From positions 659,501 to 723,500 of the forward strand of contig NC_092702.1 of assembly GCF_964275005.1 (NCBI RefSeq): 64,000 nt of DNA, given 5' to 3'. Within the stretch, counting starts at the first letter, position 1. Each line of letters opens with the position of its first letter. Positions 37,574-61,311 of the stretch are shown in pieces. The stretch comes from Diadema setosum. Lineage: Eukaryota > Echinodermata > Echinoidea > Diadematoida > Diadematidae. The notes below the pieces were generated by a model, which saw only the letters and a program-made list of their open reading frames with translations, ran no database searches and was not told the DNA's origin. Made by a program: the position numbers and the translations under genes.

Positions 37574-40491
37574 AATAGTAACTGAATATTCAGCAGGAAT
37601 AAAGAGGAAACGTGTGGTACTCACACTGCTCATGATTGAAAGATGCAGTGAAATCACGATACCATCAGTAGGTGAAATTTATTCAGAAATGGACAGGGAA
37701 AAAAAGATATGAAGATTACCTTCAAATCATCCTCACCAAAGCACAAAACTTCTTATGAATTATTGTTACATATTTGTGCAAGAAATATCATCACTATCAT
37801 CCAAAGTTTACAGATTTACAAATGCCTGAAGACATTCCTTCCCTTACTCCCATCAAAACCATCTAGGCTGGCAACATAGTATGAAAGAACAAGCACTTGA
37901 AAGATCGCCATATAAAGCTAGGTACAAAAAATACATTGTGTATGTAAGTTTCTTCTCCGATTGCAATATTTGCTGAGTGGTTAAGGCACAGTAAAAGCAC
38001 ATTGCAACATAAAACAATAATTCATACTCTTTCTGAAAGGATGAACAAGAGTGTTTCGTTTTCTAATTAAACACTAACAATGACACAAGTCTTGTTACAT
38101 GTCATGCATAATCATGAATTCATAATATAGTTGCACTCAAAGCAATCAGATTGTTTTCTTACTGTACTAGCACTCCCCTCCATGACTGGTGGCACAGTTA
38201 CAAAACTCACCATACATTATTATATTTTTACTATTCCTCTCTACAGAAATGAATATCCAGCCTCATGAGTTCACTACTACAGACATTAATGGTAAAAAGG
38301 TGATATTCGTACATAATACAATGTGCATATCATGTTACGTACAGGTGCACTGGAAATATATGACCTTTATAAACTACATTAGATTTAATATAACTGCAGA
38401 AGGACATACATTGTACCAAGAACTTTGATTTAATGTTAATGATGACAAACACAAAGGAAGATCATGCAAACTGACATTAACCACAATATAGCTTTATATT
38501 TTTACATATCCATGGTGAATCCACAAATAATGTCATACTGGCACTTCAAGGAGATGAGTCTGCATGATCCTAAATATTCCTATAAATGACTTCATAAAGT
38601 CACATAGGAAAGGAACCTTTCTGCTGTTTTAAATTAAAAAGTTTCAACATTCAACAAATTTAATGATTGCATCTCACACTTTCAATGCCAAGACAGAAAA
38701 GAGAGGTAAATAAAATGCTATTGCTGAGTTTGCATGCAAAAATCGGCATAGAACACACTCACATAACAGTTTGATCTGCCCTTGAAAACAAAAACACACT
38801 AACACCTAGAACAGTCATGCCACCATAAAGCAACCTACTGAGTATTAAAGATTGTACTGTGGTCAAAAGATGAATAAATGATAACATCATCACTTTCCCT
38901 TTTAACTTGTTACCTTGACCACGCTCGGGAGGCCATCTACCAAGATTAAACGTACTGTTTACCATTGCGAGCAGTGATTTAAAAAATAGAGTTTGAGTTA
39001 TCACATGTGATGCATATGTGTTGGTCAGTTGTATCACAAAACATCCTACCATATAGAATTATTACAATAAAGCCCAAAATATATGGAGATATCTCTATTT
39101 TTCTCACTAAACCATAACTGTAGATGGTTTTTATAGTCTAGAGACAATTTTATTATAACTATTGTTCACATTTTGTATACCTAATACTTAACATTGATTA
39201 TACTGATTAACTTTTTTACACTGTTTTTTTCTTTCCCTAACTCAGAATTTATAACAATTTTGAAGCACTAAAGCTGGGTTTTTGTTTCATCTGCAAATGG
39301 TAATGCCATTAAGCCAAATCTACCAAACTGTGCATATGGAATGGTAGCAGCAGACGGGGGAGTACTTGAAGGTAGATTGTAAGTCAAACTCATCTCTAGA
39401 AACACAAATCTAGACAAGAAATCATCAATATAATCAAAAGGCACCTCATGGAAGAGGACTTTTCAGACATTCTCTCCCTTCCTCCCCCCCCCCCAAAAAA
39501 AATGTTCATCTTCAATTAAAAAAAACCAAGAACAGTACTCTCAATGATTTTTAAAAGATCAGTTGAAATCGGTACCAGTAGGTTATCTTCAACAAGTTGC
39601 TGTGTGAAATGTGAAACTGCTGTTTCTATATCACTGTAAAAGTGCCAACACTGACAAAACGTCAAAACATGACAAAATCTAATCAATTGCATTTATGAAA
39701 CGATACTTCTTAAAGTTACAGTCGGTAGAAATACATGTATCTTTTACAGTACAATAAACAAACAGAAGAATTAACAAAGCAAGTTACAACAAAGAGTTGT
39801 TCATTTTCAAGAGTCCGACTTTGAAATAAATCTGTACTTGATACCCTGAAAGAAAACGTAGCACAACCATGAGATGTTAGTAGTAGCAGCATCTGAATCT
39901 TTTTGACTCCAATGATGTGTGCTGACACAGCACCACACTTCCCTGAAAACCTAGTGTATTTGAATCAAGGCTCTGTAAAAATTGATATTCAGGCAGTAAT
40001 TCAGTTACTGCTATGAGCACAACTGGTTGAATTCATGTAACATGTTCACACAAACATATCGTTTATCAAATATAACAAGTAAACTGTAACCATGGAAACC
40101 ATGAGAAAACCAGAAACCTTACACATGATATCAGTTTTTCATCAATACTTGAATACAGAACTTCCGATACAAATTGACGAAAATTATCAACTGAGCTGAT
40201 ACTTTGTGATTTAAACCTGTTTTTAAAGTCCCATCTATAAGACCTTCATAATTGCAAACTGATGATAGACTGATGTAAATTCTTCTCATTCATCCAGTTG
40301 ATGTACAAGATGAATGATTATTTGAATTAAAAAAAGGAAATAGACTCACATGATGCAACTTTTCGCCAATTATCATAATAATTGGTGAAGCGTCACATCG
40401 AGTGAGTTTATTTCCAGTTTTTTTTATTTGAATAGTTATCAGTTGCAAACTGATGATATGTCTAAAGAACCCCACTAGTCAAGATGCCTTT

Positions 40492-42835: not shown

Positions 42836-43170
42836 TCATTGCACCACACTCGGCCCCCTCAGACTCTGGGTGCGAAGAGGAGGACGACTTGGGAGCATGG
42901 GTGGTTTCCTTGGAGTAGAAGGCTTTTTTGGGACCGATAGTTTATTGGCAATAAAGGGCTTCTCCTCCACCTCCTCATCCATACCATCATCTTTAGTGAT
43001 GCGATCTCCACCTTTCCTCCAGTCATTGTCTTTAGAGTTGTTGGCATTAAAGTTTGGTCTAGAGCGTGAAACTGGCTTCAGGGCAGCTCTGGCACCAGCT
43101 ATGCCATTTTCAGGAGTCTTGGTCTCGTGGACTGAAGGTGGACGTTTCAAAGGCGGGGCAGGTCTCAGCG
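42836..43170 (-). CDS. Cytoplasmic tail exon, distal part
   Basis: From the duplicated CGCTGAGAC the frame runs LRPAPPLKRPPSVHETKTP, then ALKPVSRSRPNFNANN, a Glu-rich DEEVEEKPF, KPSTPRKPPMLPSRPPLR and GPSVVQ, then TGA. About 108 codons are open with no stop. There is no splice acceptor of its own at the start; it begins at the edge of the inserted element. Confidence 0.8.
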
Positions 43171-46100
43171 TAGTCTAGCGGGCGACGTATTTTTAGCCTA
43201 AATCAGTGTTTGGCAGTCAATAGAGGGCGCGACGATGTGGAAGTCAAGTTGACTAAAAATACGTCTAGTAAGAAACCTCCGAATAGAGGCGTGGAACCGG
43301 GTGTGGCATGACAGTTGTCAGTCGTCAACTCTCGAAGTTTTATTGGCTGAGCATCGGATGTCAATCAAAACACGTCGCAGAGCCCGAAGAAATGCTAGTC
43401 TACTCTCCTAGGTATACTACAGATAATCTTTCAATAAAAATACAGTTTGCCTGTCTCTTTCAGCTTACTACAGTATTTTTTCACTCTTCTCCATTCTTTT
43501 TAAGGTTTATTACATTTTACCTTACTTCAAATACAAAAGAATGATGGTAATCAGTGCAACTGACTTCAGTTGTAAATCTGTGAGGGTTTTGCACGTGGAA
43601 ACTACGCCCAAATTACTGCCGAATGCAAACCTTCAATTATTGGAGTAAAGTCTACTTGATATATACTTTAATTGTACGTTTCGGAAATATATCTGATATC
43701 ATTACTCCCCTCTATCATTTTTACCCTTGAGTTACCATATATTTTTGCATCAAACTTTGTAAGATATTTGCTTAACATCAATAAAGCTGCCGTCAAGACA
43801 TCAATCTCTATATCGGAGCACCGTAGACTTTAAACAGGCATTTTCTGTCGTGTTCACGCGTGATCATACTGTCACGGAAGAACACGTCCGCGGTACATGG
43901 GCGTCCAAGGGGAAAACAAAGAGGAGGTGTGACACAAAAAGATTCCTGCAAAGCCAAAGGCACAGGTGAACTATGGTGCATCCTTTGCAATCATAAAATT
44001 ACGAGATGCCATCTACGTGGTGCTGGCAACAAGTAATGATAAACCGATTCAATCTGAATCACATTTTATTACAATGCATATGAGGACATCTTTGTGGCCA
44101 TTCTGTATGCATATTATGTATTGCTAAATTGAGTATCATCAACAAGCTAACAACTGTGGTAAAATTCACATACAAACACGCACGCACACACACACACACA
44201 CACACGCACGCACAAGACGTATTACGCAACTGAGGCACAACACGCAAGATTTGTGTCCATGTCCAAATCGCTAAAAGTGACACGTATGGCTCTGCTAAAG
44301 AGTCTTGTACGATTTTCGCCTGGAAGATCTCGTTTAGAGGTAAGGCGTGGTTGTTAAAATAACATTCACATGATTCGACCTGTCAGAAATAAATTATACT
44401 CGTATTTTCTGACAAGATTTCAGAAATGATTATGTTTCTTCGTGTCATTCCTGGGATGCATCAATTCAAGGATCGTTAATCTGATAATAAGATCAGGTTC
44501 GTTATTCAGAAAATGAAATATTCTTTTAGTTACAAAATACGTTGATGTGACACCAATAATAAAAGGTTGAATATTATGCATTAAAAATTGAACGAAAACA
44601 CGCACACGTATTCATGCCTACACACGTGCACACACACGCATTGACACACACAAAGACAAGTATAATGACAAACATACACAAACTAAAAAGGTCAAAAATA
44701 AAGCACACGTGTATGTGCTGATAATCCCCTTTGAAATACGGCCCAAATCTTAGATCAGCCCCTTCCCACTCTCATAACTCAAATGCATCAGACATGCAGA
44801 TGTAAACCAAGGATGACAGAAAAAGGCAGCAACGGTGACGAAATTAAATCAGCCCACAATGTGCTTATCTAATGCCTCAACTTATTTTCCACTTTGCTTA
44901 GAGTAGCAAGATTCTGAATGTGCTTTATCAAGACGTTTTGTCCAAGACACACTTGCTTTGGATTGCAGGGGTCAAATACCTCAAATAAGGGGTGACGAAA
45001 GAAGGCGGCAACGGTATCGAAATCGATTCAGCCAAAATATTCTTAAATAATCCATCAACTCGTAATTCAACATTGCTGAGAGTTGCATGCTTCTCAACGA
45101 GCCAAATCAAGACATCTTATCCAAGAGACGTGCCCTTTGGATTAGAGGCTCAAATACTTGATGACGTTGTAAATACAGGATGACGAAATAAGACAGCAGG
45201 GTGACAAAATCGATTCAGCCAAAAATATGCTTAGCGAAGGCATGAAATCATTCTGCCGCTTTGATTGGAATTGCATGCTTCTTAATGTGCTATATCAATA
45301 ATTTCTCTCCAAGTGGCATGAGCTTTGAATTAGAGGGCTGAAATGCATCAGACCAATGTACAGAAAGGGTGACGAAAAAAGGCAGCAACGGTGACAAAAT
45401 CGAATCAACTTACAATGTGCTATGGTAAAACAATATCATACCACTTTGCTAAGGGTTACATGCCTCTCAATGTACTATATCAACAAGTTTCTTTTTTTTT
45501 TTCCAGGACACATGTGATTTGGATTAGAGGGCTAATATACATGATGAGATGTAAATAAAGGGCGAATAAAAGAAGAAAGGAGAACGCTGACGAAATCGAT
45601 TCAGGCAACAAAACGCTTGAATAATACATCAAATCGTTTGACTACTATGATCGGAGTTGCATGCTTCTCAGTGTGCTTTATAGTGCATCAAGAAGTTCCC
45701 CCCTGTGACGTGTGCTTTGCATTCTAGGGCTCAAATACATGAAACTAATTGTACATGAAGGGTGGTGAAATAAGGCAGCAACGGTGTCTAAATCGATTCA
45801 GTCCACGATATGATTAGCTAATACGTCGAATTGTTCATTTTGTTCAGAGTTGCATGTATCCCAATGGGCTTTTGCTATGGGGACTCAAATACATAAGAAA
45901 GTTGTACATAAAGGATGAAGATAAATGCAGCAACTGTGAGGAAATTTTACTAATCCTAAATGTGGTTAGGCAATATATCAACTCGTCATACCACTTTGCT
46001 GAGAGTTGCATGGTTCTCATTGTGCTACAGCAAGACGTTTTCTCCATGGGGCATATTGTGCTTTAGATTAAAGGGCTCACTTGTATCAGGGAGATGTAAA

Positions 46101-49100
46101 TAAAGAGTGACGAAAACAGACAGCAACGGTGACGAAATCGATTTGGACTGAAATTTATTCAAGTACTACTCCACTCTTTATACCTTTCTACAGAGAGCCG
46201 AATGGTTCGCATTGCGCTTTATCAAGGCGTTTTTATCAAAGAAGCGTGTACTTTGGATTTGAGGGCTGCATGCTTCTCAATGTGCTTTATCAAGAAATTT
46301 ATAAAAGAGACATGTGTTTATATTAGAGGGGTCGAAAATACATGATGAGGTTGTAAATAAAGGGTGACGAAAAAGGCAATCAGGGTGACGGAAGCAAACA
46401 GTGTGTCTAAATGATGCTTCAAATTATTATATCAAATTAGTTAGTGTTCCATGCTTCTCAATGTGTTACATCAAGACATTTTCTCCCAGAGACATGCTCT
46501 TTGCATTCGAGGTCTTAAATACATGATGCCGTCTTACACGAAGGGTGACGAAAAAGGCGACAACGGTGACGAAATCGATTTAGTCCAGGATATGATTAGC
46601 TAATACATCAAATTGTTATACAAGTTTTACAGTCGTATATCACAATGTACCTTATCAGTATTTTTTTCAAGTGGCATGAGCTTTGGATTAGACAACTACA
46701 ATGCATCAGAAAGTTGTACGTAAAGGTTGACGAAAAATTCACCAGCTATGACGAAATCAAATCAGATCAAAATGTGGTTACGTGATATATCAACTCGTCA
46801 CGCCACTCTTTTGGGAGTTGCATGGTTCTGAGTTTGCTAAATCAATACGTTTTATCCAAGAGACGTATGCTTTAGATTAGAGGGCTTAAATGCATCAGAC
46901 AGTTGTAAATAAATAGTGACAAACACAGGCAGCAACAGTGACGAAATCGAATCAGCCAACATGTTGCTTAAGCAATAAATCAATTCGTCATATCACTTTA
47001 CTGAGATATGCATGCTTTTCAATGTGCTTTGTCAAGGTGTTATATCCAAGAGATGTGTCCTTTAGATTAGAGGGCTCAAATGCATCAGTCATTTGAAGAT
47101 AAAGGGTGACGAAAACAGGCAACAGTGGTGACGGAATCGAATCAGCCCACAATTTGCTCAAGTAATAAATCAACTCGTCATATCACTTTATTAAGAGCTG
47201 TGTGCTTCTTATTGTGCTTTATGAAGACATTTTATGCAAGACATGTGGGCTTGGATTAGAGGGCTCAAACGCATCAGATAGTTGTAAATGACGGGTGACG
47301 AAAACAGGCAGCAGCGGTGACGGAATCGAATCAGCCAACAATATTCTTTATTACTAGTACATCAACTCGTTATATCGCTTAACTGAGACTTGTTTACTTC
47401 TCAACGTGCTACGTATATCATGACGTTATATCAAAGAGAAAAGTGTTTTGGAATAGTATATGGCTCAAATACATCAAGAGTTGACAAACAGGGGAAAACC
47501 CCACAACGAAGAGCTGTACGGTTCATATGCAGTTACTACATTATCCGCGATCCAGACTGTACCACGTGCATGAGGGAGAAACTAAACTTGCCAACTCTTA
47601 CCTTGGGATGCCAGGTCCGGAGATTAAAATCATTCTTCAAAGCGGTAGAGGGGTTGGTCCCAGCCCTACATTCTAGAATTGTTTTCACTAAAGTAAGACC
47701 CAAGCGAAATATAACAGCAAAGAAATATAAAGAATGTAACGTAACAAAAAAAATGTCGAAAATTACGTTACAAATCAAACTAATTACACACTAAGGCACT
47801 GTAACACATCAGTATACCGACCGAGTTTCCCTCTTTTTTGTGAAACCGATCCTGCTTTGAAATTAACTTCCAGCTGAAGTCGTTAACAGTATATTAAGGA
47901 GGTTTTCAAAGCAAAGATTGAGCAAAGTCTTCTTCACTTTGACTACCAACGCTCCCAATGTGCCCTCTCTCACCCGGCGCCTTATACCGCAAGGTCCTGC
48001 ACCGTACTACATCCAGAACCAGGAAGGATGACCAAAAAAACGGCAGTAACGGTGACGAAATTTAATCAAGCCCCGATGTGTTTAGGTAATGCGTCAACTC
48101 GTAATACCACTTTGCTGAGAGTTGCAGGCTTCCAAATGCTCTACATCAATATGTTTTCTCCCAGAGACAAGTGTTCTAGATTAAAGGCTCAAATAAATGA
48201 TGGCAAAGTGAATAAAGGGTGACGAAAAAGGGCAACAGCGGTGACGAAATGGATTAAACCAACAATATGCTAAAATATTACATCAAATCGTTACACCAAT
48301 TTGTTTAGACGTACAGGCTTCTCAATGAACTATTTCAAAATGTTTTTGTCGCAGAGATATATGCTTTGCATTCGAGTTCTTCAAGGACAAGTTCACCTGA
48401 CTAGACACGTGGATTGAGTGAATGCATTTTGTTGGCTGAATCGTTTTTGTCATGTTGACTCTCTCATTTTCGTCACCCTATATGTACAACATGTACAACT
48501 GTCTCATGTACTTAAAGGACAAGTTCACCTTCATAGACATGAGGGTTAAGTGAATGCAACAATATTTAGTAGAACACATCAGTGAAAGTTTGAGGAAAAC
48601 TTGACAATCCGTTTAAAAGTTATGAATTTGTAAATTATCTGCACAATCACTGCTTCATGAGAAGACTATGATGTCATATGCATAGAACCATATGAGGAAA
48701 ATGATAAGAGGAAAACTTCGCTTTTTGAATAAAGTGCTTATTTCCTGGACTTGTTATTGTTATATTTAAAGAAACATTACCCCCCTCGCCTTCTGAAGTA
48801 GAGAAGTCGATTGTTCTTTTTTATGCGAGAAAAGTGGAAACATGTTTGATTTTCTTTATAAAATGTACTTTTTTATATTGTTGTACACATGTGACATCAC
48901 AAGCCAAAGTAGTCTTGTCATCTAGCCATGACTAAGCAGAAACTTCAAAAATGTATAACCTTTGAACGGATTGTCCGATTTCCATTAAATTATCACTAAT
49001 GTGTTCTGCTGATATTGCTGCATTCACTTAACCCACATGTCTATGAAGGTGAACTTGTCCTTTAAATACATGAGACAGTTGTATATATAGGGTGACGAAA

Positions 49101-52100
49101 ATGAGAGGCAACAGTGACAAGATCGATTCAACCAACAATATGCTTAAATAATGCATTAAATCGCTATGTATATTAAAAAGTTTTCTCAAAATTACAAATG
49201 CTTTGGATTTGGAGGACACGCATGATACGCATCAACCAAGCAATTATAGACCTGTCTCCCTGACATCCGTGATGTGTTAAAAACATGAGCAGATGATATG
49301 TAAGCCTTCTTGCAACATTTGGAGAATCACAACATCCCGTCGCCCTTTAATCACCGTTTTAGACTACTGATTGAACAATTGCCCAGCTCCTCAGAACAAT
49401 GTATGATCTTTTTCTTGCCCATGACAAGAAGGTCCAGACTGACACCATCCTTTTGTATGTCTCCAAAGCTTTCGATACGTTACCGAACGGTTCTCAAGCG
49501 GTTACTATTTTTGTTCTGAATAAACGACCTACCAAATACTCTCAAGTCCCGACTCATTACGCCTTTTGGTAGATGACTGCCAATTAAAAAAATAATAATA
49601 AGTCAAGTCTTAGCGTGATTATATCAAGTTGCAAGATTTATTTCAACTGAAAAAAAAAATGGGCATCCGACAGGGGAATGAGGCTCAATGGTGACAAATG
49701 CCAAGTATGAGTACTGACGACAAATCCTCATACTTGCCCCAGGCCACCATAAACAAAATTATCACTGAATGCAACGTACATAATTATGACCAAGAATGGA
49801 TTTCTCAGGAGGTATCACTTTTCATGTGCTGATATATTGAAGTATACAAGAACACTTTATTACACTTGTCTGGGAAGAAGTGAAACTGAGCTTTCATAAA
49901 GAGAGAACATTGAACTTGATGATCTCACGTCTGAAGATGGCTCAGATGTTTGGCCTATGAACGAGTATGCTGATGCACAAGAAGGGAATAGTGACAGTGA
50001 TAATGATTAGATACGGGAGTAGATCAAGTTCAAAATACTCTACTGAATTAAAGGCATTATCTACCATGTCCAGATGAAACAAAAGTCCATCTTAAGTGCT
50101 TCAAAATATTTCTAAAATTTGGATTAGGGATAGAAACGACAAATGTAAAAATTAAGTACTATGTATTGTTGATTTACAAATTGGGTACAATAGTTATAAT
50201 AAAACATGTAGCTAGACTAAACCATATTAAGTTTTAGTTTATTGAGTAAGGCTTTATTGGTCGGGGCTTTTTTATACAACTGACCTATACAAATGCATCA
50301 AAATTGACATGATAATTCAAACATTTTTAAATCACTACTCCCAATGGTAAACAATGCCTTTAATGATCTGCATTGCCTCGTTACATGTTTTTTACTGCTA
50401 CTAATAAATAGTACCCATCTCTTTGTGTTGGATAGGCCTACACAGCATTTCGATAACATTTTTTTTATAGTTTCTAGGATTCCTTTTAAATGATCTGCTC
50501 TTATCGTCAGGGTTCGCTCGCATCTTAATAAAAACCGTGTTTAATTGGTCTTCTTGTTTTTGAAGGGAATATAAGCAACATTATTATGAATTATGATCAG
50601 TGCACTTCAATACACAAGCCCTGCACTGGAGCAAACTGCAACCCACTGGTAGAATTGAAGAGTTTATTCGCAAAAACCGATAAGTTCATTTTTGAAGATT
50701 TTGAAGTACGGTCTCTGTCATATAATAACATTGCATAAAGTACAAAATAATGCCTTTTAAATGATTATATTGGTCACTACATTATAAAGGTACATTTTTG
50801 AAGTTATGGCCAAAAGAAGCAAATATTTTCCTATCATTCTCTTTATTTTTCTTGACCTTTAATTGCAACTATCTCCATTTGGCAAATATGGACTTATCGG
50901 TTTTTGCAAACAAACTCTTCAATTGTAACTAACTAATCACATTGTTATGTGTACTATGACTGAACTACAAACCGAATTTGGTTCAGGTGAGTGAACATCA
51001 TATGACACATAGTGTATAACACAATATAGGCCTATTTGCAAATGTAGGCCTATTGGAATAAATTTCCAGTTTATAAAATAATGGGCAAAAATAGCAAGAT
51101 TGAACAACATTATTGCTTTTCTCAAAGCCAACATAACTTTAATCCCCTTTGCTTTCTAATATAAATGCTATCTCGACTATATCATGGCCATTTGAGATAA
51201 AATATGTGTTATATGGATGATTAAACTGTATTCATATTATTATTATACTGACCCATTCGTCTTGCACATTATGGTGGAAAAGCACAGGCAACCTTATTTT
51301 CTCAAAAGAAGGGCAATACAGAAAGCGTTTCAGCGCCTCTGTCACAAATTTCCATCATTTATCCATAAACTACAAATATATGAAGAGTTTGTTTGCAAAA
51401 ACCGATAAGTCCATTTTTGAAGATTTTGAAGTACGGCCTCTGTCATTAAGTACAAAATAATACCTTTTAAATGATATATTGGTCACTACATATAAAGGTA
51501 TATTAATTTTTTGAAGTTATGATCAAAAGAAGCAAAAATTTTCTTATTGTTCTCTTTATTTTTCTTGACCTTTAATCGCAAATATCTCCATTTGGCAAAT
51601 ATGGACTTATCGGTTTTTGCGAACAAACTCTTCATATTTAGCTCCCAAATTGATATGTTATAATAATCATCATAGATTTAAGTCATTTTCACCATGATCA
51701 TAATTATAAATCGTCCATGCTATATCTCCATAGTTATTAAACGACACTTGGCGTTTTATGATAGCATGTTTTACAGTAGTCGTTGAGATAAGTAATTTGT
51801 CGGCCTATTTGCACACATATAGAATGCAAGGTTTCACTTCATATCTATTACTCGATAAATTATTACTCTATTTAGGCACTTCCATCATGACTGGTGATGT
51901 ATGTGCCGCTGGACAGAATCTACAGCTTTATAGAAGATCGCATTTCCATGTTTCGCTATTCGAACAGAGTCACTTTATTTGTCAGCTGAATTGGACATTG
52001 TGAAAATAAGTGTCTTTTTTTCAGGCAAACGTATATCAAAGCAATGAAAATTCTGGCTTTGGTGCGCTGACCACTAACGCAAGTTATTTATACAGATATT

Positions 52101-55100
52101 TGGTTAAATAGATGCAGAAAATCATGGTGGATAAAGCTTGATAAGAAAACTATAATAGTGTGCTGATAAAAGAGAAAACAGGGTCTTTCACGAAGCGTAA
52201 AAGCGGTATCGTGTTTAACATCTTCTACGGAGTGAGAAAGGTGAATCTCCACATGCAAGCGAAGCTTCTATCTGAAATCGTTCGTCACTGCATTCAGAGC
52301 AACAATTTTGTAAATTCCAGATGTCCTTATGGCTCACTCGAGGTGCATCCATATTCAAAGAGTATGCTTTACCCATTCACGCCTATACTTCCTAGTCATA
52401 TTTCACACTTTCGAGAAAAACATAAAAAATACTGCTGGTGCTCGCGCATTTCCAAACATTTGCCTAATGTCTATATTTTGTGATGCCACGTTGACCTACT
52501 GTACACCTGGAAATATAACTTTAACTTTTCAACCAATGTATAACGTCCCTCGAAGCACTTTCTAAGATATGAAAACCAGGAAAATGAGGTATAGGAATTA
52601 CCATGAGCTACCAACTATATAAGCATGTATACATTCGTGGATGTTTGATTTGACAACCGGGAAATTGGATAAAAAAGGTCGTGGTTTTTTTTCTCCTTTG
52701 CGTGTGTGTGTATGCATCAGCCACATTGGTTAGCTTAATTTTCTGCATTGGCATGCATTCGGAATGGTCAGAAAGATGTCCTAATTTGCATTTGTAAAGA
52801 AATGTGAATAAGATTGAATCGGTTCCTCCTTACTTGTTGCCAGCACCACGTAGAAGGCATCTCGTAATTTTATGATTGCAAAGGATGCACCATGGTTCAC
52901 CTGTGCCTTTGGCTTTGCAGGAATCTTTTTGTGTCACACCTCCTCTTTGTTTTCCCCTTGGACGCCCATGTACCGCGGACGAGTTCTTCCGTGACAGTGT
53001 GATCACGCGTGAACACGACAGAAAATGCCTGTTTAAAGTCTACGGTGCTCCGATATAGAGATTGATGTCTTGACGGCAGCTTTATTGATGTTAAGCAAAT
53101 ATCTTACAAAGTTTGATACAAAAATATATGGTAACTCAAGGTTAAAAATGATAGAGGGGAGTAATGATATCAGATATTATTTCCGAAACGTACAATTAAA
53201 GTATATATCAAGTAGACTTTACTCCAATAATTGAAGGTTTGCATTCGGCAGTAATTTGGGCGTAGTTTCCACGTGCAAAACCCTCATAGATTTACAACTG
53301 AAGTCAGTTGCACTGATTACCATCATTCCGTTCTATTTGAAGTAAGGTAAAATGTAATACACCTTAAAAAGAATGGAGAAGAGGTGAAAAAATACTGTAG
53401 TAAGCTGAAAGAGACAGGCAAACTGTATTTTTATTGAAAGATTATCTGTAGTATACCTAGGAGAGTAGACTAGCATTTCTTCGGGCTCTGCGACGTGTTT
53501 TGATTGACATCCGATGCTCAGCCAATAAAACTTCGAGAGTTGACGACTGACAACTGTCATGCCACACCCGGTTCCACGCCTCTATTCGGAGGTTTCTTAC
53601 TAGACGTATTTTTAGTCAACTTGACTTCCACATCGTCGCGCCCTCTATTGACTGCCAATCACTGATTTAGGCTAAAAATACGTCGCCCGCTAGACTAGTC
53701 TCAGCGGCGCTTTGCCAGATTGGTTCTCTATAGTACCGGGCAGATTGAAGCTGTGTGAGCGTGTTGTGGGTTTAGACTTGGGTAGCAGTGCCTTGACTGC
53801 GGGATCAGTCGGTGGTGCAGAGGGGCGTGAGACCGCACCCTTGGGGCGGCTGGGTGGTCCTGTGGGGCGGCTTGGGGGTGGAGCACTTGGCTTTAATGGC
53901 TGCTGGGTAGGGACTGGTTTGTACTTCACATCTGGATTGGTAGGTACCAGGGGATGAATGTCATGCACTACAGATCCAGTACCGGTGTTTGGTATATGCT
54001 CAATAGTAGGCGGTGAGGCACGGATGGAGGGAGTACGAACAATATTCTTACTGGAAGTTCCGTTGCTGCTGACATATCTCTTGTTCACATATGAGCCATG
54101 CCTGCTCCTGGAAAATAAAAGTTGTATATAAAAAGACAAACTTAGCAGCTAAAAGAGACATCACAGTTCTTACAGTGTCTGACAGAACTGTTTCTACTTA
54201 CATAGTGATCCACTTCACAAAGATTGGGCGGAAATCAACTGCATAATAACTTGCTCCCAGATATGCTCTTCATACTGTCTGAAATAAACAAGTAACCTGT
54301 ATCATCCAAAATTTTTGTGAACAAAGAATGAAGAGTTGTAAAAACATTTTTTTTTTTAAATCTCACAGATGAGTGATATGACACTTCCATGACAAAAACA
54401 TAGGCGAAAAGCAAGAAAACCTCTAAAGGGAAAGAGATGCCAAAAAATGCCAATGACATATGGATGCACAGGAAAAATTCATAAATCTACCAAATTGCTC
54501 AAAATCTAATAAAGACAAATTTCATTTTTGTATTCCCTATTCAAATTTTGTTTGATAACAACATCATATTCACAATGACACAAATACTAATAAAAAATTA
54601 CAGCTAGTTTTCCACTCACGCTGCCTGATCTCATAAATTCATACATGCAAAGAAAAAGTTTATATAAATCCACATACACATAAGAAGAGACTTGTACAAA
54701 GACCTGTAACCATACAAAATAAGTCATACGATAAAGGATTGACCTCGATCAACTTAATTAGACACATCAATGCTGCTTAATCACACAAAATACATACAAT
54801 ATAGGAAAATACAAAAATCTCGTACATCATAATTCCATTGATTGAACAAGACTCTTATTCGCAGTTTTTCTTAACACCGCCCTCTCCCCCATATCTCATA
54901 TTTTATATTGCCAAAAAAAGGGGGAGATATTACTGGTAATCAAGAAAGATATAACATGAAGAAAACAATCCTTACCCAGAATTTGGCTCCTTGCTTTTCT
55001 GAAACATCTGCAGGAGCTTCTTGCGTTTGCAGTATAGAATGACACCAATAGCAATGAGGGGGAGGACCAAGAGGAAGAAGATGAGGATACCTGCCAAGAC

Positions 55101-55114
55101 ACCATTGGACACGC
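42836..55114 (-). CDS. Type I membrane protein, TM and proline-rich tail (ADAM-like?), split by a 10.5-kb insertion
   Basis: Exons read on the - strand: 55114-54976 (transmembrane) and a tail exon 54107-53698 continuing, after the insertion, at 43161 down to the stop at 42836-42838. The first gives VSNGVLAGILIFFLLVLPL plus IAIGVILYCKRKK, one hydrophobic helix with a basic stop-transfer. The tail starts SGSRHGSYVNKRYVSSNG and is full of SH3-type ligands (LKPSAPPPSRPTGPPSRP, KPPMLPSRPPLR), ending GPSVVQ. A GVxxG-type TM with a long Pro-rich cytoplasmic tail recalls ADAM12/ADAM19-class metalloproteases, but no catalytic domain is in view, so that name is tentative. Ectodomain exons should lie beyond 64000. 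The 9-bp duplication sits in the same frame on both sides, so the pre-insertion exon was about 736 nt of continuous coding sequence. Confidence 0.75.
43162..43170. repeat. 9-bp target-site duplication, left copy
   Basis: GTCTCAGCG directly abuts the element's terminal TAGTCTAGCGGG. The same 9 bp directly follows the other end. Confidence 0.9.
43171..44070 (+). repeat. Left terminal inverted repeat of the 10.5-kb element
   Basis: It runs from TAGTCTAGCGGG to about GATTCAATCTGAATCACATT, pairing with 52797-53697. A smaller inversion (TTTTTAGCCTAAATC against GACTAAAAATACGTC) lies in the outer 100 bp. Short open frames here occur in both TIRs and look like no known protein. Confidence 0.9.
44186..44216. 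repeat. (CA)n microsatellite
   Basis: CGCACGCACACACACACACA-type dinucleotide run just inside the left TIR; another looser CA-rich run lies at 44600-44660. Confidence 0.85.
44750..48340. repeat. Tandem array, about 185-bp unit, inside the 10.5-kb element
   Basis: Unit plan: AAGGGTGACGAAAAAAGGCA, CAACGGTGACGAAATCGATT, CAGCCAACAATATGCTTA, ATCAACTCGTCATACCAC, TTTGCTGAGAGTTGCATGCT, TCTCAATGTGCTTTATCAAG, then GAGACGTGTGCTTTGGATTA and GAGGGCTCAAATACATGA. GTGACGAAA recurs near 44990, 45178, 45367, 46105, 46370, 46545, 47105, 47292 and 48215, with degenerate copies between, giving roughly 16 units. Copies are diverged, so the array is older than the minisatellite at 14300. A LINE fragment interrupts it at 47485-48000. 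Confidence 0.88.
47485..48000 (+). mobile_element. LINE fragment inside the tandem array, C-terminus of ORF2
   Basis: An open frame reads GKTPQRRAVRFICSYYIIR, MREKLNLPTLTLGCQVRRL, FFKAVEGLVPALHSRIVFT and KARPKRN-like sequence, the C-terminal RT-distal region of a non-LTR retrotransposon (QRRAARFV...L.W..L..RR...L...YK...GLV). Past the stop, VFKAKIEQSLL-like sequence follows. It is flanked by array units. Confidence 0.8.
48420..49145. repeat. Palindrome of array sequence with a MITE at its centre
   Basis: To the left of the central MITE lies TTTTCGTCACCCTATATGTA with ACTGTCTCATGTA, the inverse of the right flank TACATGAGACAGTTGTATAT with ATAGGGTGACGAAAATGAG. The pairing covers roughly 90 bp per arm outside the MITE. 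Just left of it (48388-48420) is a second partial MITE end, AAGGACAAGTTCACCTGAC. Confidence 0.75.
48517..49064. mobile_element. GGACAAGTTCACCTT foldback MITE
   Basis: TTAAAGGACAAGTTCACCTT and AAGGTGAACTTGTCCTTTAA are perfect ends, and the interior is collinear with the copy at 16658-17223. The similarity between the two copies suggests fairly recent activity of the family. Confidence 0.88.
49235..49725 (+). mobile_element. LINE fragment, reverse-transcriptase palm region
   Basis: Frames read YRPVSLTSV, ICKHLLQHLENHNIPSPFN, then DKKVQTDTILLYVSKAFDT (RT motif A, FSKAFD in intact relatives), INDLPNTLKS-like sequence and KWASDRGMRLNGDKCQV. The order is that of a non-LTR RT, but the frame shifts several times. 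It probably derives from the same LINE family as 47485-48000, although the two pieces are in reversed order. Confidence 0.75.
49725..50656. other. Unassigned interior of the 10.5-kb element
   Basis: Mostly AT-rich non-coding DNA. A short acidic open stretch at 49902-50010 (+) reads RENIELDDLTSEDGSDVWP, then MNEYADAQEGNSDSDND and TAG, like the acidic C-terminal end of a larger protein. It has no upstream continuation and no family match I recognise. Confidence 0.4.
50657..50925. mobile_element. Hairpin MITE, TGAAGAGTTT family, copy 1
   Basis: TTGAAGAGTTTATTCGCAAA and the inverted TTTGCAAACAAACTCTTCAA bound it; AACCGATAAGTTCATTTTTG pairs with ATATGGACTTATCGGTTTT. It is about 269 bp and non-coding. 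Confidence 0.88.
51379..51636. mobile_element. Hairpin MITE, TGAAGAGTTT family, copy 2
   Basis: ATGAAGAGTTTGTTTGCAAA and TTTGCGAACAAACTCTTCAT are the ends. The body is collinear with the copy 450 bp upstream, in the same orientation, apart from small indels. Confidence 0.88.
51637..52796. other. Unassigned AT-rich interior of the 10.5-kb element
   Basis: Short open frames up to 107 codons occur (for example 52160-52483 +), with normal-looking composition but no recognisable domain. They could be remnants of an element gene; nothing supports expression. Confidence 0.35.
52797..53697 (-). repeat. Right terminal inverted repeat of the 10.5-kb element
   Basis: It is the inverse of the left TIR with scattered substitutions and one-base indels, for example TCCGTTCTATTTGAAGT against the left arm's ACTTCAAATACAAAAGA. 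Confidence 0.9.
53698..53706. repeat. 9-bp target-site duplication, right copy
   Basis: GTCTCAGCG directly follows CCCGCTAGACTA. It matches the left copy perfectly, and exon sequence resumes beyond it. Confidence 0.9.
53698..54107 (-). CDS. Cytoplasmic tail exon, proximal part
   Basis: The acceptor TTTTATTTTCCAG joins in phase to the TM exon. About 137 codons are open: RHGSYVNKRYVSSNGTSSK, HPLVPTNPDVKYKPV, PLKPSAPPPSRPTGPPSRPK and TTRSHSFNLPGTIENQ, up to GKAPLR. Reading on into the inserted element gives only Leu-Val and then TAG. SH3-binding motifs (PxxPxR/K) are plentiful. Confidence 0.85.
54976..55114 (-). CDS. Transmembrane exon
   Basis: Acceptor CTCCCACTCTGTAG and donor TCTGG/GTAAGG (both on the - strand). 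After two bases completing a codon it encodes VSNGVLAGILIFFLLVLPL, then IAIGVILYCKRKKLLQMF and QKSKEPNSG. A helix of about 23 hydrophobic residues followed by CKRKK predicts a type I orientation. Confidence 0.85.
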
Positions 55115-56930
55115 CTACAGAGTGGGAGACAGAAACAGTATCAATGTCATTAAAAAACTGTCCTCAAAATATGAACAGGAAAAACACTCATAAGTATGTC
55201 AAAATATTCTTTATAATAGCTTACAGAATTTTCCAAGTGGACAGAGTTGATTTGTAGGAACATAAATTTTCATATTGAAAATTTTCATATTGAAAACTTA
55301 AATGAAAGCAATTCGATGTATTTTATGGTACCAAATTCTGTACTGCATGTTGTTTTGCAAATAGGAATTACAGCTCTAATTTAAGAAATATTTATAATAA
55401 TAGCTTTACAACAAGTTCAATTTGTTTAATCTGACATCAATTATTGTCATTTTTTAGATGGTCAGTTAACCCTCTGCCTGCCGTATTAATTCCCTGTCCA
55501 AAGGTATGCATGTGGAATTTGTTCACATTTGACTCACTGGCACAGAAAGGGTTAATAAAACAAATTAAATAGGTGTTATAGAAAAATCCAGTGACACAAG
55601 AAATTAAATTTCAGTTATCAAATCAGACAATGATAAAATGCATTTAGATTTTATATGTGACAGTTAAAAACTGAATCTGGAACAAAAGGAATATGTCATG
55701 AAGTTATTCCATACCCTTAATGAGTCAAAACAAAACAAAAAAGGTAAAGAAATAAGTCTACATATTCTAATTTTGATATGAACATTTTACTAGTGTGGGG
55801 ACATTTCTTATATTAACACGACATTATTTGAGATGTTGGAAAACAATCCAATGACAGATATGGGATATTGAAAAACATCCAATTTGATTTAACAAATGAA
55901 GTATTAAAGTTATTACCATAAAACAGAAAAAAATAATAATCAGGTTTGATGAAACTGCCACTTAAAAAATTCAAAGACAATGAGTATTCAACAATTTTTA
56001 CACTTTGCTGACAAATAAGGTAAAAACCACACACATACATATTTGTGCAGTCTTTAAACTAGCATAATTCTTAGAGTTAGTGGTCTTTGGATTTTGGATT
56101 TACAAGGATTCACTAGAATATATTAACATTAAATATTTATTTGTTGTTTGCTTTACTGGCTGAGGAATCACCAAAACATATCAGGCCATGTAAGACACTA
56201 TGCAAATATTGCTCTTAATAACATTAGTCAAAGAATAGCTTCTGAAAGCTGAAGTCAGGCTTGCTTCAGTACTAAATGCTTGTCCTTTCTTGAAAACCAG
56301 TAACTCACCATCATGAACTGAACATACATGTATCAATAAAAACTTTAGAAGTGCATACTTGTGCATAAGCTAGCCTATTCAGATGGTAACTTGTCTTTTT
56401 CCATACAAATTAAGGCTTCTGAGAAAAAAGACGAGATTGCCCGTAATATAAAAATTATGGCAATTTATTCAAACATCATTGTTTAGCATAATTATTATAA
56501 GGTACGCATATCAAAATATTTTGCATCTTGGCAAGAAGCAGAGCAGAAATTTGCAGAGCTCAAAGACAAACCAAATACAGTTATATATAGTACACAGCAG
56601 TATGCTCCTAAGCTGGAATACACAGCAATGAAGGTCTCACACCTATAAACCACACGGATTTACCCTTGCCTCTTCACAACACCATATCAAACATACTAAA
56701 ACAAATTAGAAAGAAGATTCATTACAGATAAGCCCTATGAGTTTTACGCAAACTTTTTAGCTGCGCTTGATGAGGGAAAATTTCTTCACCAAGAGCTTAC
56801 ATTATGAGTGTCTCGTCCAAACATTCTGAGGGATTATTTTTTTGATTAGCATAGAAACACCAAAATGCTGACAATTTCTGAGTGAGACGGCATGTAGTCT
56901 AACTAGACTCGGAATTTGTCAACACTGACA
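55115..56930. other. Intron of the membrane-protein gene
   Basis: AT-rich, mostly unique DNA upstream (on the - strand) of the TM exon. I see no further exon with matching phase here. Confidence 0.5.
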
Positions 56931-59213
56931 AATTAGGTGATCCGATCTATTGGGAAATCAATGATTTGAGTCCTGATCCCAATAGGCATGACCATACAGG
57001 TTTCATCTGTGTTGAGGGGACATTGGCCATGTGATGTTTGGAGTCTCATTAAGAAAAGGGAGTCAGACCTGCCATCTTTGGTACCGAATTCCGTATGCAC
57101 TAACGAAGATACAGAATGAAGTATATTTGACCTTTGACCCCATTTTGCACACCAAAGATGGCATCTGAGCAAAAAGTAGTTATTGTGTGAAATGATTCTT
57201 GTAACATGGTCTTTGTGTGTGCAAAATATGGGAAAGATAGGACAAGTATTCACCAAGATACAGGATGAAACATTTATGACCTTTGACCCTAATTTACATA
57301 CCCAAGATGGTGTCCGATCAAGTAGTTGTTTTTTATGAAATAATGTACGTGACATGAACTAAACATGTGCAAAATATGGGGGTGATAGAGGCTGTTTTTC
57401 TTGAGTTATTACAAAGAAAGTTGCAGAAAGAAAAATATCTCAATACATCGAAGATAAGCTTTAATTTCAACCAAGTTTTTTAGCATGATCCAGACATCGT
57501 ATGAAAAAACAAAAGACACATTTTTGATAGCGCAAAGTCTCAGCTACAACATATTAAAATGTGGGAGAAATTCACCGAAGGGTAAGTGAGCTAGTGCTCG
57601 ATAAAAACAATCATGTCAACTTTCCTATCTAGAAAAATTCCCTCCCATAGAGATAACACGTCATAACGAAGATACAGAAAAAAAGTACATATGACCTTTG
57701 ACCCCACTTTGCACAGACAAGATGGCATCTGAGCAAAAAGTGGTTATTTTGTGAAATGATCCTTGTAACATGGTCTTTACGTGTGCAAAATATGGGAAAG
57801 ATAGGACATGTATTTACTAAGATACAGGATGAAATATTTATGACCTTTGACCCTAATTTACATACCCAAGATGGTGTCTGATCAAGTAGTTGTTATTTTG
57901 TGAAATATGTACGCGACATGAACTAAACATGTGCGAAATATGGTGGTGATAGGGTGTTTTTCTTGAGTTATTGCAAAGAAAGTTGCAGAAAGGAAGAAAT
58001 ATTTCAATACATCGAAGATAAGCTTTAATTTCAACCAAGTTTTTGGACGTGATGCCGACTCCGTATGAAAAAACGAAGGGCACATTACGATAGCCCAAAG
58101 TCTCAGCTACAACATACTAAAATATGGGAGAAATTCACCGAAGCATAAGTGAGCTAGTGCTCGATAAAGATAGTCATGTCAGTTTTCATTTCCAGAAAAA
58201 CTGCACTCCCATAGAGATAACACGTAAACTGGTCAAATTTGACAATGTTACTTTTAATCCCTTTTTACGAGGTGATGCCGTCATCCAATAAAAATGTTGT
58301 TTTTATATGACTGAAAGACCATTTAATAAGCTACAACATATTGAAATTTGGACGAAAATCAACAAAAGAATAAGTGTGATACGCTTGAGTGAACTTGAAA
58401 TTTGATGACGTCATTTTGAAAATTTACTTTCTTTACTTTATTAAGAAATTTGATATCTTTTAATCATTTTTCCAGCATAGCTGACCCATGAAATGACATG
58501 TACAACTCATCAGCTTTCAGAATATGTAAAGAAAATGGGGGGTCACCGTCCATCCTGACGAGTAAAATCGGATTCAAAATTGGCGGTTTTTTTTTCATTG
58601 TTGGACTGTATATCGCCATTGACGCGCGCGCGGAATTTCAACTTTGACGGGTCCGTATGACGTCATATTGAGTCAGATTGACTTGAAACTTGGTAGAAAT
58701 ATTCCTTGACATTTCAGGCATCCGATAAGTGTAAAAATTTTTTTTCAATTTTTCAAAAAATGCTCCAAATGGTCTGAAACGTGTGCAAAAAAAAAATCTG
58801 AGCTCGATTTCAGCATACAAATATTTCGACGCGCGCGTACGCGCACGTTTTAAGAGAAAATACGAATTTTGAGAATATGAGTAGAATTCGCATAACTTGA
58901 AATATATGTGACGTAAATCTCATTGAAAGATTCCATTCCATTAATGAGATATGAATGAGAATGTGTTTTCATATAATGACGTCATAGTGACGTCACGGTC
59001 AACTGATCACTATGATTTTATTAGACCCGTCGTCTTTGGGACATGATACATGTATGGTATAATTTTGACATTGATAGGAAGAATACTTTCTGAGCTAATC
59101 GATACACAAAATTTGTCCAGAAATAAAGAAAGAAGAAGAAGAAGAAGAACACCCAACAAAGAATCCGTACAGATACAGAAGGTGATCCGAGAGGATACTC
59201 GGATCACCTAATT
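56931..59213. mobile_element. 2.3-kb TIR element, AATTAGGTGATCCGA ends
   Basis: AATTAGGTGATCCGA on the left is the exact inverse of TCGGATCACCTAATT on the right. The right end also forms a hairpin by itself (GGTGATCCGAG, 6-base loop, CTCGGATCACC). Inside, an approximately 540-bp block starting near TACAGAATGAAGTATATTTG and containing TGACCTTTGACCCCA and ATGGTGTCCGATCAAGTAG is present twice (about 57105-57600 and 57670-58150). No protein domain is seen, so it is non-autonomous. Confidence 0.8.
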
Positions 59214-59334
59214 CAAAGGACCTAGTGCAGGAGTTTGAGCAGGAAAAAAAAATCTTTGCAAATCCATTGCCTAAATTGATAAAAGTTGCTTTATTTGGCG
59301 ACCAAATAGGAAATTTTGGGTATGTTTGTGTATT

Positions 59335-60165
59335 TACTTGAACTTGAACTTTATTGAGAATAACACCTTTTGGCCCCGTGGGGGCATATAAAGGCTTAAA
59401 CGCACATAACATAAACATAATATAATACTATAACGATATAGAACATATTTACAAATATACATGTATATACAGTTGTCAGCCGTCACTCAATCTGTGAATC
59501 AAGGTCTACTTGGCAGTAAGCAAAATTAATTACTTAATTACTTAAAGGGAAGGTTCAGCAATGGGGTAGAGGGAGGTCTAAAATATATATTTAAAAAAAA
59601 GATTTTCGATTATAAATTCATCGATTAACAAATTTTTCATCACTTTTGAATGGTAAGTTCTCTAAAAACTAGGACAAAAATGCAAATAGGTTCTAAAGTA
59701 ACAAAGTTACATTTTAATCGGAGTATACAATAACAAAGAGTTTTTTAAGACAGTTGAAAGCTTCAATTTTGTTCCACTATTGAACCATCCCTTTAGGTTG
59801 GAACCGGATAAATAGTAATGGTGCATAAGACATTATAGTTTCTGAGTAAAACAATAATATTAAGAGTCATGGAATTAGGAGGGGGGAAAATGTATTCTAT
59901 GGGGAGGGGAAGGGGAGGAATGGGGGTGGGGAGGAGCTAAAATGGTGGCTTAGAGGACTTGAGTTCCACCATAATAGCATGGGCAAACTTGGCAAGTATG
60001 ATCAAAATCTTTCTATCTGCAACATTAAACAGCTTTTCCATTTTATATGTATTTGGCTTAGTATAATAATAACTTGGTAATAATTCTGACCTGGTATTTT
60101 CTAATGAACTGCATTCAAAAAGGACATGAAATTCATCACCAATCTTTTCTCTTTTACACAGAGTA
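59335..60165 (-). mobile_element. LINE fragment, 3' end of ORF2 and UTR
   Basis: On the - strand LCKREKIGDEFHVLFECSS begins at the right edge, followed by SYYYTKPNTYKMEKLFN and ILIILAKFAHAIM, then a stop near 59937 and a UTR ending GTGTTATTCTCAATAAAGTT with CAAGTTCAAG repeats. C..xxxIGDExHxLFxC...YYxxxPN...LFN is a familiar C-terminal zinc-knuckle-like segment of LINE ORF2 proteins in sea urchins and cnidarians (recollection). It is 5'-truncated or cut at the junction with the next LINE. A 254-bp MITE is nested in its UTR. Confidence 0.8.
59542..59795. mobile_element. MITE, TTAAAGGGAAGGTTCA ends
   Basis: CTTAAAGGGAAGGTTCAGCA on the left and TATTGAACCATCCCTTTAG on the right are inverted with mismatches. 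It is nested in the 3' UTR of the LINE fragment. Confidence 0.75.
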
Positions 60166-60170
60166 ACGTA

Positions 60171-60180
60171 AAGATGGCGC
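60171..60180 (+). promoter_or_regulatory. YY1-like motif at the LINE 5' end
   Basis: AAGATGGCGC lies within about 10 bp of the inferred 5' boundary. Mammalian L1 also carries an AAGATGGC YY1 site near its first base, where it sets the transcription start. The match is seen; the function here is inference. Confidence 0.4.
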
Positions 60181-60360
60181 GCTTGACAACGGACGCGTAA
60201 TCTTGACCGTCGTGGCCACCGCATGGCTTTCTCTTCAACTTTAGGGACATTTCCCTTTATTTGTGTAACATTTCTGTCCAAGAACTACGCAATGCCTCGA
60301 TTTTCGACATTTCAACAATCCTAAGCCGTTAATCCAACCCGGAATGTAACCGCGACAAAC

Positions 60361-61311
60361 ATGCCCCGACACAAATCTAACGCTGGCACCACCCAAGCTG
60401 CCTCTCCCGCTGCCTCCCCCGCGGACGCTGTGGCTCCACCACTGACGCGAGTGAACGACACGGAGTATGCACGAAGCGACTTCGACGAAAGTCGAGCTCA
60501 AAATCAGTCGCAGGTCAACAGCCAGCCTTCACCAACTTTAGCCGACTTACAGCGCTTAATGAACTCTAACACCAACATGGTATGTGGTAAGCTTGATTAT
60601 CTGACAGCAGAGGTCTCATCCATCAAAAGCAAATTATCGCAGCTAGAATCATCAGTGAGTATGAATTCAGACAAAATCATTGCTATCGAACATAAGCATA
60701 TCCCTGAACTGCAAAACCAATTCGAAAAGGAAATCGCTTCCCTCAAAGATAAGCTACTTGCCGCTGAGATCTACAATCGACGTCCTAATCTCTTGTTCTA
60801 TGGCATCAATGAGTCCCCCGAGGAGGACATTTTCTCTGTTCTGAGAAATGCTTTCTGTCAACTTGGCATTCCTGTGAGGGAAGCCAACGGTATCACCATC
60901 ATCAATGCACATCGCTTGCCTCATCCAAGACACAGCACCCAGGATGAAGGGGCTGCATCGCCAGCACACCAGCCCAGACCACCTAGACCCAGGCCAGTAA
61001 TCGCAAAGTTTCTGTACATTAAGCAGAGGGATCAGATTCTTCAAGCCTTTGAAAACAAGTCTCGCGCCAAGCAGACCAAGTCCTCAATACCGGCCCATGA
61101 CCATGCTCAGCAGGACAGCAGCAAGAACGTCACATTCACAGTGCGCACTGACCTTCCTCCAGTCCTGAAGGCAAGAAGAGGTCTGCTTGCAAAAACTGCG
61201 TACAACCTAAGAAAGTCTGGCAAATCAACCAGAATCATCATTGTAGGCAGCAAGGTTGTTCTGCAATGGAAGGAGAAAGGTACCACCAAATGGAATGCTT
61301 ATGAAGATTGA
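60361..61311 (+). CDS. LINE ORF1 protein (coiled coil plus RRM-like domain)
   Basis: 316 codons from ATG to TGA. ORF1p is the RNA-binding chaperone that packages LINE RNA. The N-terminus is Ala/Pro/Ser-rich (to about residue 55). Residues 60-140 form a heptad-like coiled coil (LDYLTAEVSSIKSKLSQLE, then KEIASLKDKLLAAEI). Residues 141-235 read IYNRRPNLLFYGINESPEE with VIAKFLYIKQRDQIL, the RRM-like fold of transposase-22/L1-type ORF1. The C-terminal part (VTFTVRTDLPPVLKARRGL, STRIIIVGSKVVLQW) matches the small CTD that follows. The nucleotide spacing to ORF2 is unusually long. The frame is fully open. Confidence 0.85.
   Translation: MPRHKSNAGTTQAASPAASPADAVAPPLTRVNDTEYARSDFDESRAQNQSQVNSQPSPTLADLQRLMNSNTNMVCGKLDYLTAEVSSIKSKLSQLESSVSMNSDKIIAIEHKHIPELQNQFEKEIASLKDKLLAAEIYNRRPNLLFYGINESPEEDIFSVLRNAFCQLGIPVREANGITIINAHRLPHPRHSTQDEGAASPAHQPRPPRPRPVIAKFLYIKQRDQILQAFENKSRAKQTKSSIPAHDHAQQDSSKNVTFTVRTDLPPVLKARRGLLAKTAYNLRKSGKSTRIIIVGSKVVLQWKEKGTTKWNAYED

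What the first reader, a model, noticed from the sequence alone, without database searches (positions are those of the whole stretch)
43171..53697. A 10.5-kb long-TIR transposon splits a membrane-protein coding exon
Exon halves on each side share one reading frame and a perfect 9-bp duplication, so the insertion point is certain to the base. The two TIRs differ at a scatter of sites, which suggests the insertion is not brand new, yet neither exon half has gained a stop. That combination is odd for a disrupted gene. The options are a tolerated truncation that removes about 108 residues with SH3 ligands, removal by splicing, or a heterozygous allele.
Basis: partly seen in the sequence, partly recalled or inferred. 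Interest (0 to 1): 0.85.

Follow-up and report, generated by a model that had tools for sequence, protein, structure and literature searches.

The report
Long-armed jumping gene interrupts last exon
A 10.5-kb piece of mobile DNA with long mirror-image ends has landed in the last exon of what looks like an animal membrane-protein gene and probably cuts about 108 residues off its tail; this is a clean but ordinary transposon insertion, and nothing about its age is paradoxical.

Summary
An element of 10,527 bp (43171-53697) with inverted arms of about 945 bp sits between perfect 9-bp copies of GTCTCAGCG. Joining the flanks gives one open frame of 243 codons (0 of 2000 shuffles open) that follows in phase from a transmembrane exon.

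The oddness claimed for it does not hold. The arms of a DNA transposon are not copied from one template at insertion, so mismatches are at best a rough age guide. Mismatch density rises inward from 0.3% to 2.3% to 19%. Even used as a clock, the arms predict a distal half free of stops and frameshifts with probability 0.51-0.63.

Most likely outcome: translation adds two residues, stops at a TAG in the arm and drops about 108 residues. Splicing the element out is unlikely: the one GT in the element before that stop scores -4.2, against 7.7 for the gene's own donor, on a recalled matrix.

No transposase was recognised, so the superfamily is open; Mutator-like is a lead only. Whether the allele is fixed or heterozygous cannot be tested, because no host genome is held.

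The parts
43171..53697 (.). Long-TIR DNA transposon, 10,527 bp, no recognised protein domain
   Evidence: Boundaries; no Pfam match reaching a curated cut-off and no PDB match in the frames scanned
43162..43170 (.). Target-site duplication GTCTCAGCG, left copy
53698..53706 (.). Target-site duplication GTCTCAGCG, right copy
43171..44115 (+). Left terminal inverted repeat, about 945 bp, homology fading at the inner end
52750..53697 (-). Right terminal inverted repeat
43184..43265 (.). Pair of facing 15-mers GACGTATTTTTAGYC near the left tip (mirror pair 53603-53684 at the right tip); possible protein-binding or hairpin site (inference; motif chosen by eye)
   Evidence: 4 exact matches, 0.24 expected at up to 2 mismatches; weak DNA hairpin, z -1.81, 8 of 200 shuffles as good
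44800..48398 (+). Degenerate tandem array of about 190-bp units, with no unit found at about 47,482-48,016; a further partial unit at 49079-49189
   Evidence: 18 nhmmer matches at E up to 1e-3, all inside the element
48376..49086 (.). Nested inverted-repeat element inside the array; relative at 16656-17238
50650..50927 (.). Nested small element with inverted ends, first copy
51378..51637 (.). Nested small element with inverted ends, second copy
53698..54107 (-). Proximal half of the terminal coding exon, ends GKAPLR
   Evidence: Acceptor score 6.9; in phase with the transmembrane exon
42836..43170 (-). Distal half of the terminal coding exon, down to its stop codon; native AATAAA near 42541
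54976..55114 (-). Upstream exon encoding the transmembrane segment
   Evidence: Donor score 7.7; sequence and phase
53690..53692 (-). First in-frame stop (TAG) met by the gene inside the arm
53430..53435 (-). AATAAA in the arm, 262 bases into the element on the gene strand; a possible early poly(A) signal
   Evidence: not above chance (1 seen, 0.23 expected in the first 300 bases)

Best explanation
A large, apparently non-autonomous cut-and-paste DNA transposon, moved by a transposase encoded elsewhere, inserted into the terminal coding exon of a single-pass membrane-protein gene and duplicated 9 bp of target. Shown: the arms, the duplication, the rejoined open frame, the in-phase upstream exon, and no recognised protein domain inside. 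Inferred: transcripts enter the arm, are translated for two extra codons (LV) and stop at TAG; because this is the last exon the message should escape nonsense-mediated decay (general knowledge), and it may end at an AATAAA 262 bases into the arm. The product keeps the transmembrane segment and the proline-rich proximal tail but lacks about 108 C-terminal residues. The insertion is either a segregating allele captured in the assembled haplotype or a tolerated truncation; the first seems likelier to me on general grounds only.
For: Exact boundaries and a 9/9 duplication. Joined frame open for 243 codons, 0 of 2000 shuffles. Phase continuity with the transmembrane exon. The stop at 42836 is followed by AATAAA about 300 bases on, as expected of a terminal exon. 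First in-arm stop after two codons. No Pfam match in six frames of 44100-52750 (E up to 1), in six frames of 43171-44170 (E up to 10) or in one minus frame of the whole element (E up to 1). The same long-frame method recovers an endonuclease domain elsewhere in the window when given the right frame. No PDB match in three plus frames of 44100-52750. The splice sites found near the junctions cannot restore the tail.
Against: No RNA, second individual, ortholog or other copy of the element could be examined: no host genome is held, and exact arm-tip patterns gave 0 matches in viral contigs and genome contigs. The AATAAA count is what chance gives. The splice scores rest on a recalled generic matrix. 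One ORF in the element (47387-47791) has a weak Pfam match below its cut-off (TMCCDC2, E 0.041, 14.4 bits against 27). The right-arm region was scanned in one frame only. An assembly join cannot be excluded from sequence alone, though a perfect 9-bp duplication at both arm tips makes it unlikely.
Confidence: 0.8

Rival explanations
1. The element is removed as an intron, so the full tail is still made.
For: A GT at bases 3-4 of the element, joined to an AG in the far tip (CTAG/ACTA), would restore the frame with five extra residues (direct reading of the sequence, no call made for it).
Against: That GT scores -4.2 against 7.7 for the gene's own donor, and later GTs in the arm lie after the in-frame stop. 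Of the combinations scanned (donors from 400 bases before to 900 bases into the element, acceptors from 900 bases before its far end to 330 after), 4 with both sites scoring above 2 are in frame, and they leave only 15-68 residues of tail. The matrix is generic and recalled.
Confidence: 0.05
2. The insertion is fixed, and the gene in this species has a shorter tail that works.
For: The retained part is open up to the arm and keeps the transmembrane segment and 9 PxxP cores. Arm mismatches of 1.5% over the first 867 positions would, if read as age, allow an old insertion; a plant MULE paper does treat high arm identity as a sign of youth (PMC3310237, passage).
Against: The distal half is still open, which favours a young or segregating insertion, but with little power.
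Confidence: 0.2
3. Assembly artefact: a repeat contig was joined into the exon.
For: Long inverted arms and an internal tandem array are hard to assemble; reads were not available.
Against: Both tips are exact and flanked by a perfect 9-bp duplication, which a misjoin would not be expected to make.
Confidence: 0.03

Closest known systems
Tm1, a Mutator/Foldback family of root-knot nematodes (PMC3169594; passages seen)
   Same: Duplications of 8-10 bp, most often 9 (45 of 53 complete elements); arms whose two copies average 93.15% identity, so mismatched arms are ordinary; groups without a transposase
   Different: Tm1 arms are composite, with repeated motifs; here the tandem array found lies between the arms
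Tetris foldback element of Drosophila virilis (PMC4079207; passages seen)
   Same: Apparently non-autonomous, long arms, 8-10 bp duplications, associated array of about 220-bp units
   Different: The Tetris array is part of the arms and its units are about 94% alike; here the 190-bp array is internal, found on one strand only, and its BLAST matches to one unit are 66-90% identical
Rehavkus / Mutator-like elements (PMC6446971 and PMC13359780; passages seen)
   Same: 9-bp duplication; long arms occur (up to 1193 bp among arthropod Mutator-like elements); Rehavkus has a minisatellite before the 3' arm
   Different: No transposase or PHD finger recognised here; Rehavkus arms are given as 26-400 bp, shorter than the 945 bp here

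Membership tests
Mutator-like (MULE) superfamily | 8-11 bp target-site duplication | tested here: met
   9 bp, identical; range from PMC6446971
Mutator-like (MULE) superfamily | Long terminal inverted repeats | tested here: met
   About 945 bp
Mutator-like (MULE) superfamily | MULE-type DDE transposase (of the element or of its autonomous partner) | tested here: inconclusive
   None recognised in the element; a partner elsewhere could not be sought
Mutator-like (MULE) superfamily | Conserved G/C among the first three arm bases (said of most arthropod MULEs) | tested here: inconclusive
   Tip is TAG, one G in three; the wording in PMC13359780 is loose
Rehavkus | 9-bp duplication | tested here: met
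Rehavkus | Minisatellite before the 3' arm | tested here: inconclusive
   An array of 190-bp units lies at 44800-49189, nearer the left arm, but with no gene inside, which arm is 3' is unknown
Rehavkus | Transposase with PHD finger | tested here: inconclusive
   No match, but the element may be non-autonomous
Foldback elements | Tandem repeats forming part of the inverted arms | tested here: not met
   Array units found only between the arms; Tandem Repeats Finder lists no array inside either arm
Introner (intron-making transposon; listing and abstract start of PMC9860276 seen) | Splice sites at or beside the element ends, spliced in frame | tested here: inconclusive
   Donor at the tip scores -4.2 on a recalled matrix, which speaks against it; no RNA

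The most novel reading that the evidence does not exclude
The arms act as a portable gene terminator: their tips carry stops in the three frames within 31 bases and an AATAAA 262 bases in, so an insertion in either orientation would turn an exon into a clean last exon. This insertion would then be a maintained natural allele of a membrane protein that lacks its SH3-binding tail.
Probability: 0.07. Interest if true: 0.5.

Novelty: new member of a known kind. Interest (0 to 1): 0.25.

Why it matters
It is a very clear insertion allele with a testable protein consequence, and it shows why arm mismatches of DNA transposons should not be read like LTR differences. If the allele segregates, it offers a natural comparison of long and short cytoplasmic tails. 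If the element family has many copies, it may carry 190-bp satellite units, as Tetris does with its 220-bp units.

Tried and rejected
Arm mismatches as a clock: not accepted, because the arms of a DNA transposon are not copied from one template at insertion (general knowledge) and mismatch density is uneven (13 of 867 against 15 of 78, Fisher p 2e-10; 1 of 336 against 12 of 531, p 0.02; boundaries chosen after seeing the data). [quoted passage not shown]

Splicing out: tested with a recalled matrix and judged unlikely.

Arm poly(A) signal as an evolved feature: not above chance.

Coding content of the element: none recognised. By eye, 47485-47760 and about 49236-49800 look like decayed non-LTR reverse-transcriptase pieces, but that is recall; Pfam and PDB searches did not confirm it. 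ORF 47387-47791 has one weak match below cut-off (TMCCDC2, E 0.041).

Host gene identity: the layout recalls a meltrin-type ADAM, but no Pfam domain was found in three minus-strand frames of 54108-64000, so the name is not claimed. The weak Pfam matches of the exons (E 0.019 and above, all below the curated cut-offs) are not used. The host species is not identified; that it is an animal is an inference from the gene layout.

Other copies of the element: outside it, the window shows only relatives of stretches at 48379-49079 and 50048-50364. Exact arm-tip patterns gave 0 matches in viral contigs (26 bases) and genome contigs (22 bases), collections that would not be expected to hold animal DNA.

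Two mis-set controls: the seventh protein, meant as a positive control, was in the wrong frame and found nothing; the right frame found the domain. In one search the separate open-frame line for the proximal half used a shifted frame and is not used; the joined and distal results are in the right frame.

Literature: passages were seen in five papers; the other papers were seen as listings and abstract starts only.

Full report
Observation. The element spans 43171-53697, 10,527 bp, and is bounded by GTCTCAGCG at 43162-43170 and 53698-53706. The direct repeat is exactly 9 bp: the next bases differ on both sides (read). The inverted arms are detected in three ungapped blocks of 321, 214 and 386 bases at 99, 96 and 97% complementarity, about 945 bp in all, after which homology is lost. 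The first 26 bases occur only at the two tips within the window.

Host gene. On the minus strand a transmembrane exon (55114-54976) with a good donor is followed by an 868-bp intron and a terminal exon starting at 54107. The phase fits: PNSG|SRHGSY reads through. The exon, with the element and one duplication copy left out, is open for 243 codons to a stop at 42836; 0 of 2000 dinucleotide shuffles are open. AATAAA lies near 42541, about 300 bases after the stop. No Pfam domain was found in three minus-strand frames of 54108-64000, so the gene is not named.

What the insertion does. Read in frame, the gene enters the arm as GKAPLR-L-V-stop. About 108 residues are lost. The distal half holds 3 PxxPx[RK] motifs (28 of 2000 residue shuffles reach this), 1 [RK]xxPxxP (884 of 2000) and 6 PxxP cores (61 of 2000); the retained 136 tail residues hold neither basic-flanked kind but have 9 PxxP cores (49 of 2000). 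Since the stop is in the last exon, decay of the message is not expected (general knowledge). An AATAAA 262 bases into the arm may end the transcript, but one such hexamer in 300 bases is unremarkable (0.23 expected; 1048 of 5000 simulated sequences have at least one). The arm tip offers stops in the three frames at bases 1, 6 and 29.

Splicing. Within the element only a GT at bases 3-4 precedes the in-frame stop; it scores -4.2 on a generic recalled matrix, against 7.7 for the gene's upstream donor. The 4 in-frame combinations found with both sites scoring above 2 use donors inside the proximal half and leave 15-68 residues of tail. Splicing that restores the tail is therefore unlikely but is not excluded without RNA.

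Age. Unlike LTRs, the arms of a DNA transposon are not made from one template at insertion (general knowledge). In the nematode family Tm1 the two arms of an element average 93.15% identity (PMC3169594, passage). [quoted passage not shown] Here substitutions are 1 in 336, 12 in 531 and 15 in 78 positions from outside to inside (Fisher tests, boundaries chosen after the fact), which one uniform clock since insertion would not readily give, although within the first 867 bases a KS test is not significant (p 0.13). If the arms are nevertheless used as a clock, 0.08-0.15 stops and 0.38-0.52 indels are expected in the 110-codon distal half, and the chance of seeing none is 0.63 or 0.51.

What the element is. 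It has no Pfam match in six frames of the interior, six frames of the left arm region or one minus frame of the whole, and no PDB match in three plus frames. Scanned as single ORFs, two pieces of it gave one weak match below cut-off and none. The long-frame method recovers an endonuclease domain in a control stretch when the frame is right (a first control was in the wrong frame and found nothing). A degenerate array of about 190-bp units (18 matches by nhmmer at E up to 1e-3, all on one strand and inside the element) fills much of 44800-49189 and is broken by other sequence and by a nested inverted-repeat element. Two small related elements with inverted ends lie at 50650-50927 and 51378-51637. 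The 9-bp duplication and long arms fit Mutator-like elements; the array outside the arms speaks against a Foldback element; without a transposase, membership stays open.

Verdict. A clean, ordinary insertion of an apparently non-autonomous long-TIR transposon into a terminal coding exon. Zygosity, fixation and family copy number need data that are not held here.

Noticed in passing
44800-49189: Degenerate tandem array of about 190-bp units, found in this window only inside the transposon; a possible satellite seed
   Followed up: partly
2012-4577: Tandem array of about 165-bp units, 15.4 copies, 83% matches
   Followed up: no
60325-64000: Probable non-LTR retrotransposon on the plus strand: a 328-aa ORF (60325-61308), then an open frame of at least 502 aa from 62495 with an endonuclease domain (Exo_endo_phos, E 3.1e-9), cut by the window end
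   Followed up: partly
29298-29780: Minus-strand ORF with a DUF4371 match (E 1.4e-8); perhaps a hAT-type transposon remnant (recalled)
   Followed up: no
16656-17238 and 48376-49086: Two relatives of one inverted-repeat element, about 71-75% alike, one of them nested in the transposon
   Followed up: partly
38945-39312 and 50048-50364: A repeat shared between the transposon interior and the window outside it, 67% identical
   Followed up: no
23222-23410: Tandem duplication of a 95-bp unit, 2.0 copies at 100% matches
   Followed up: no
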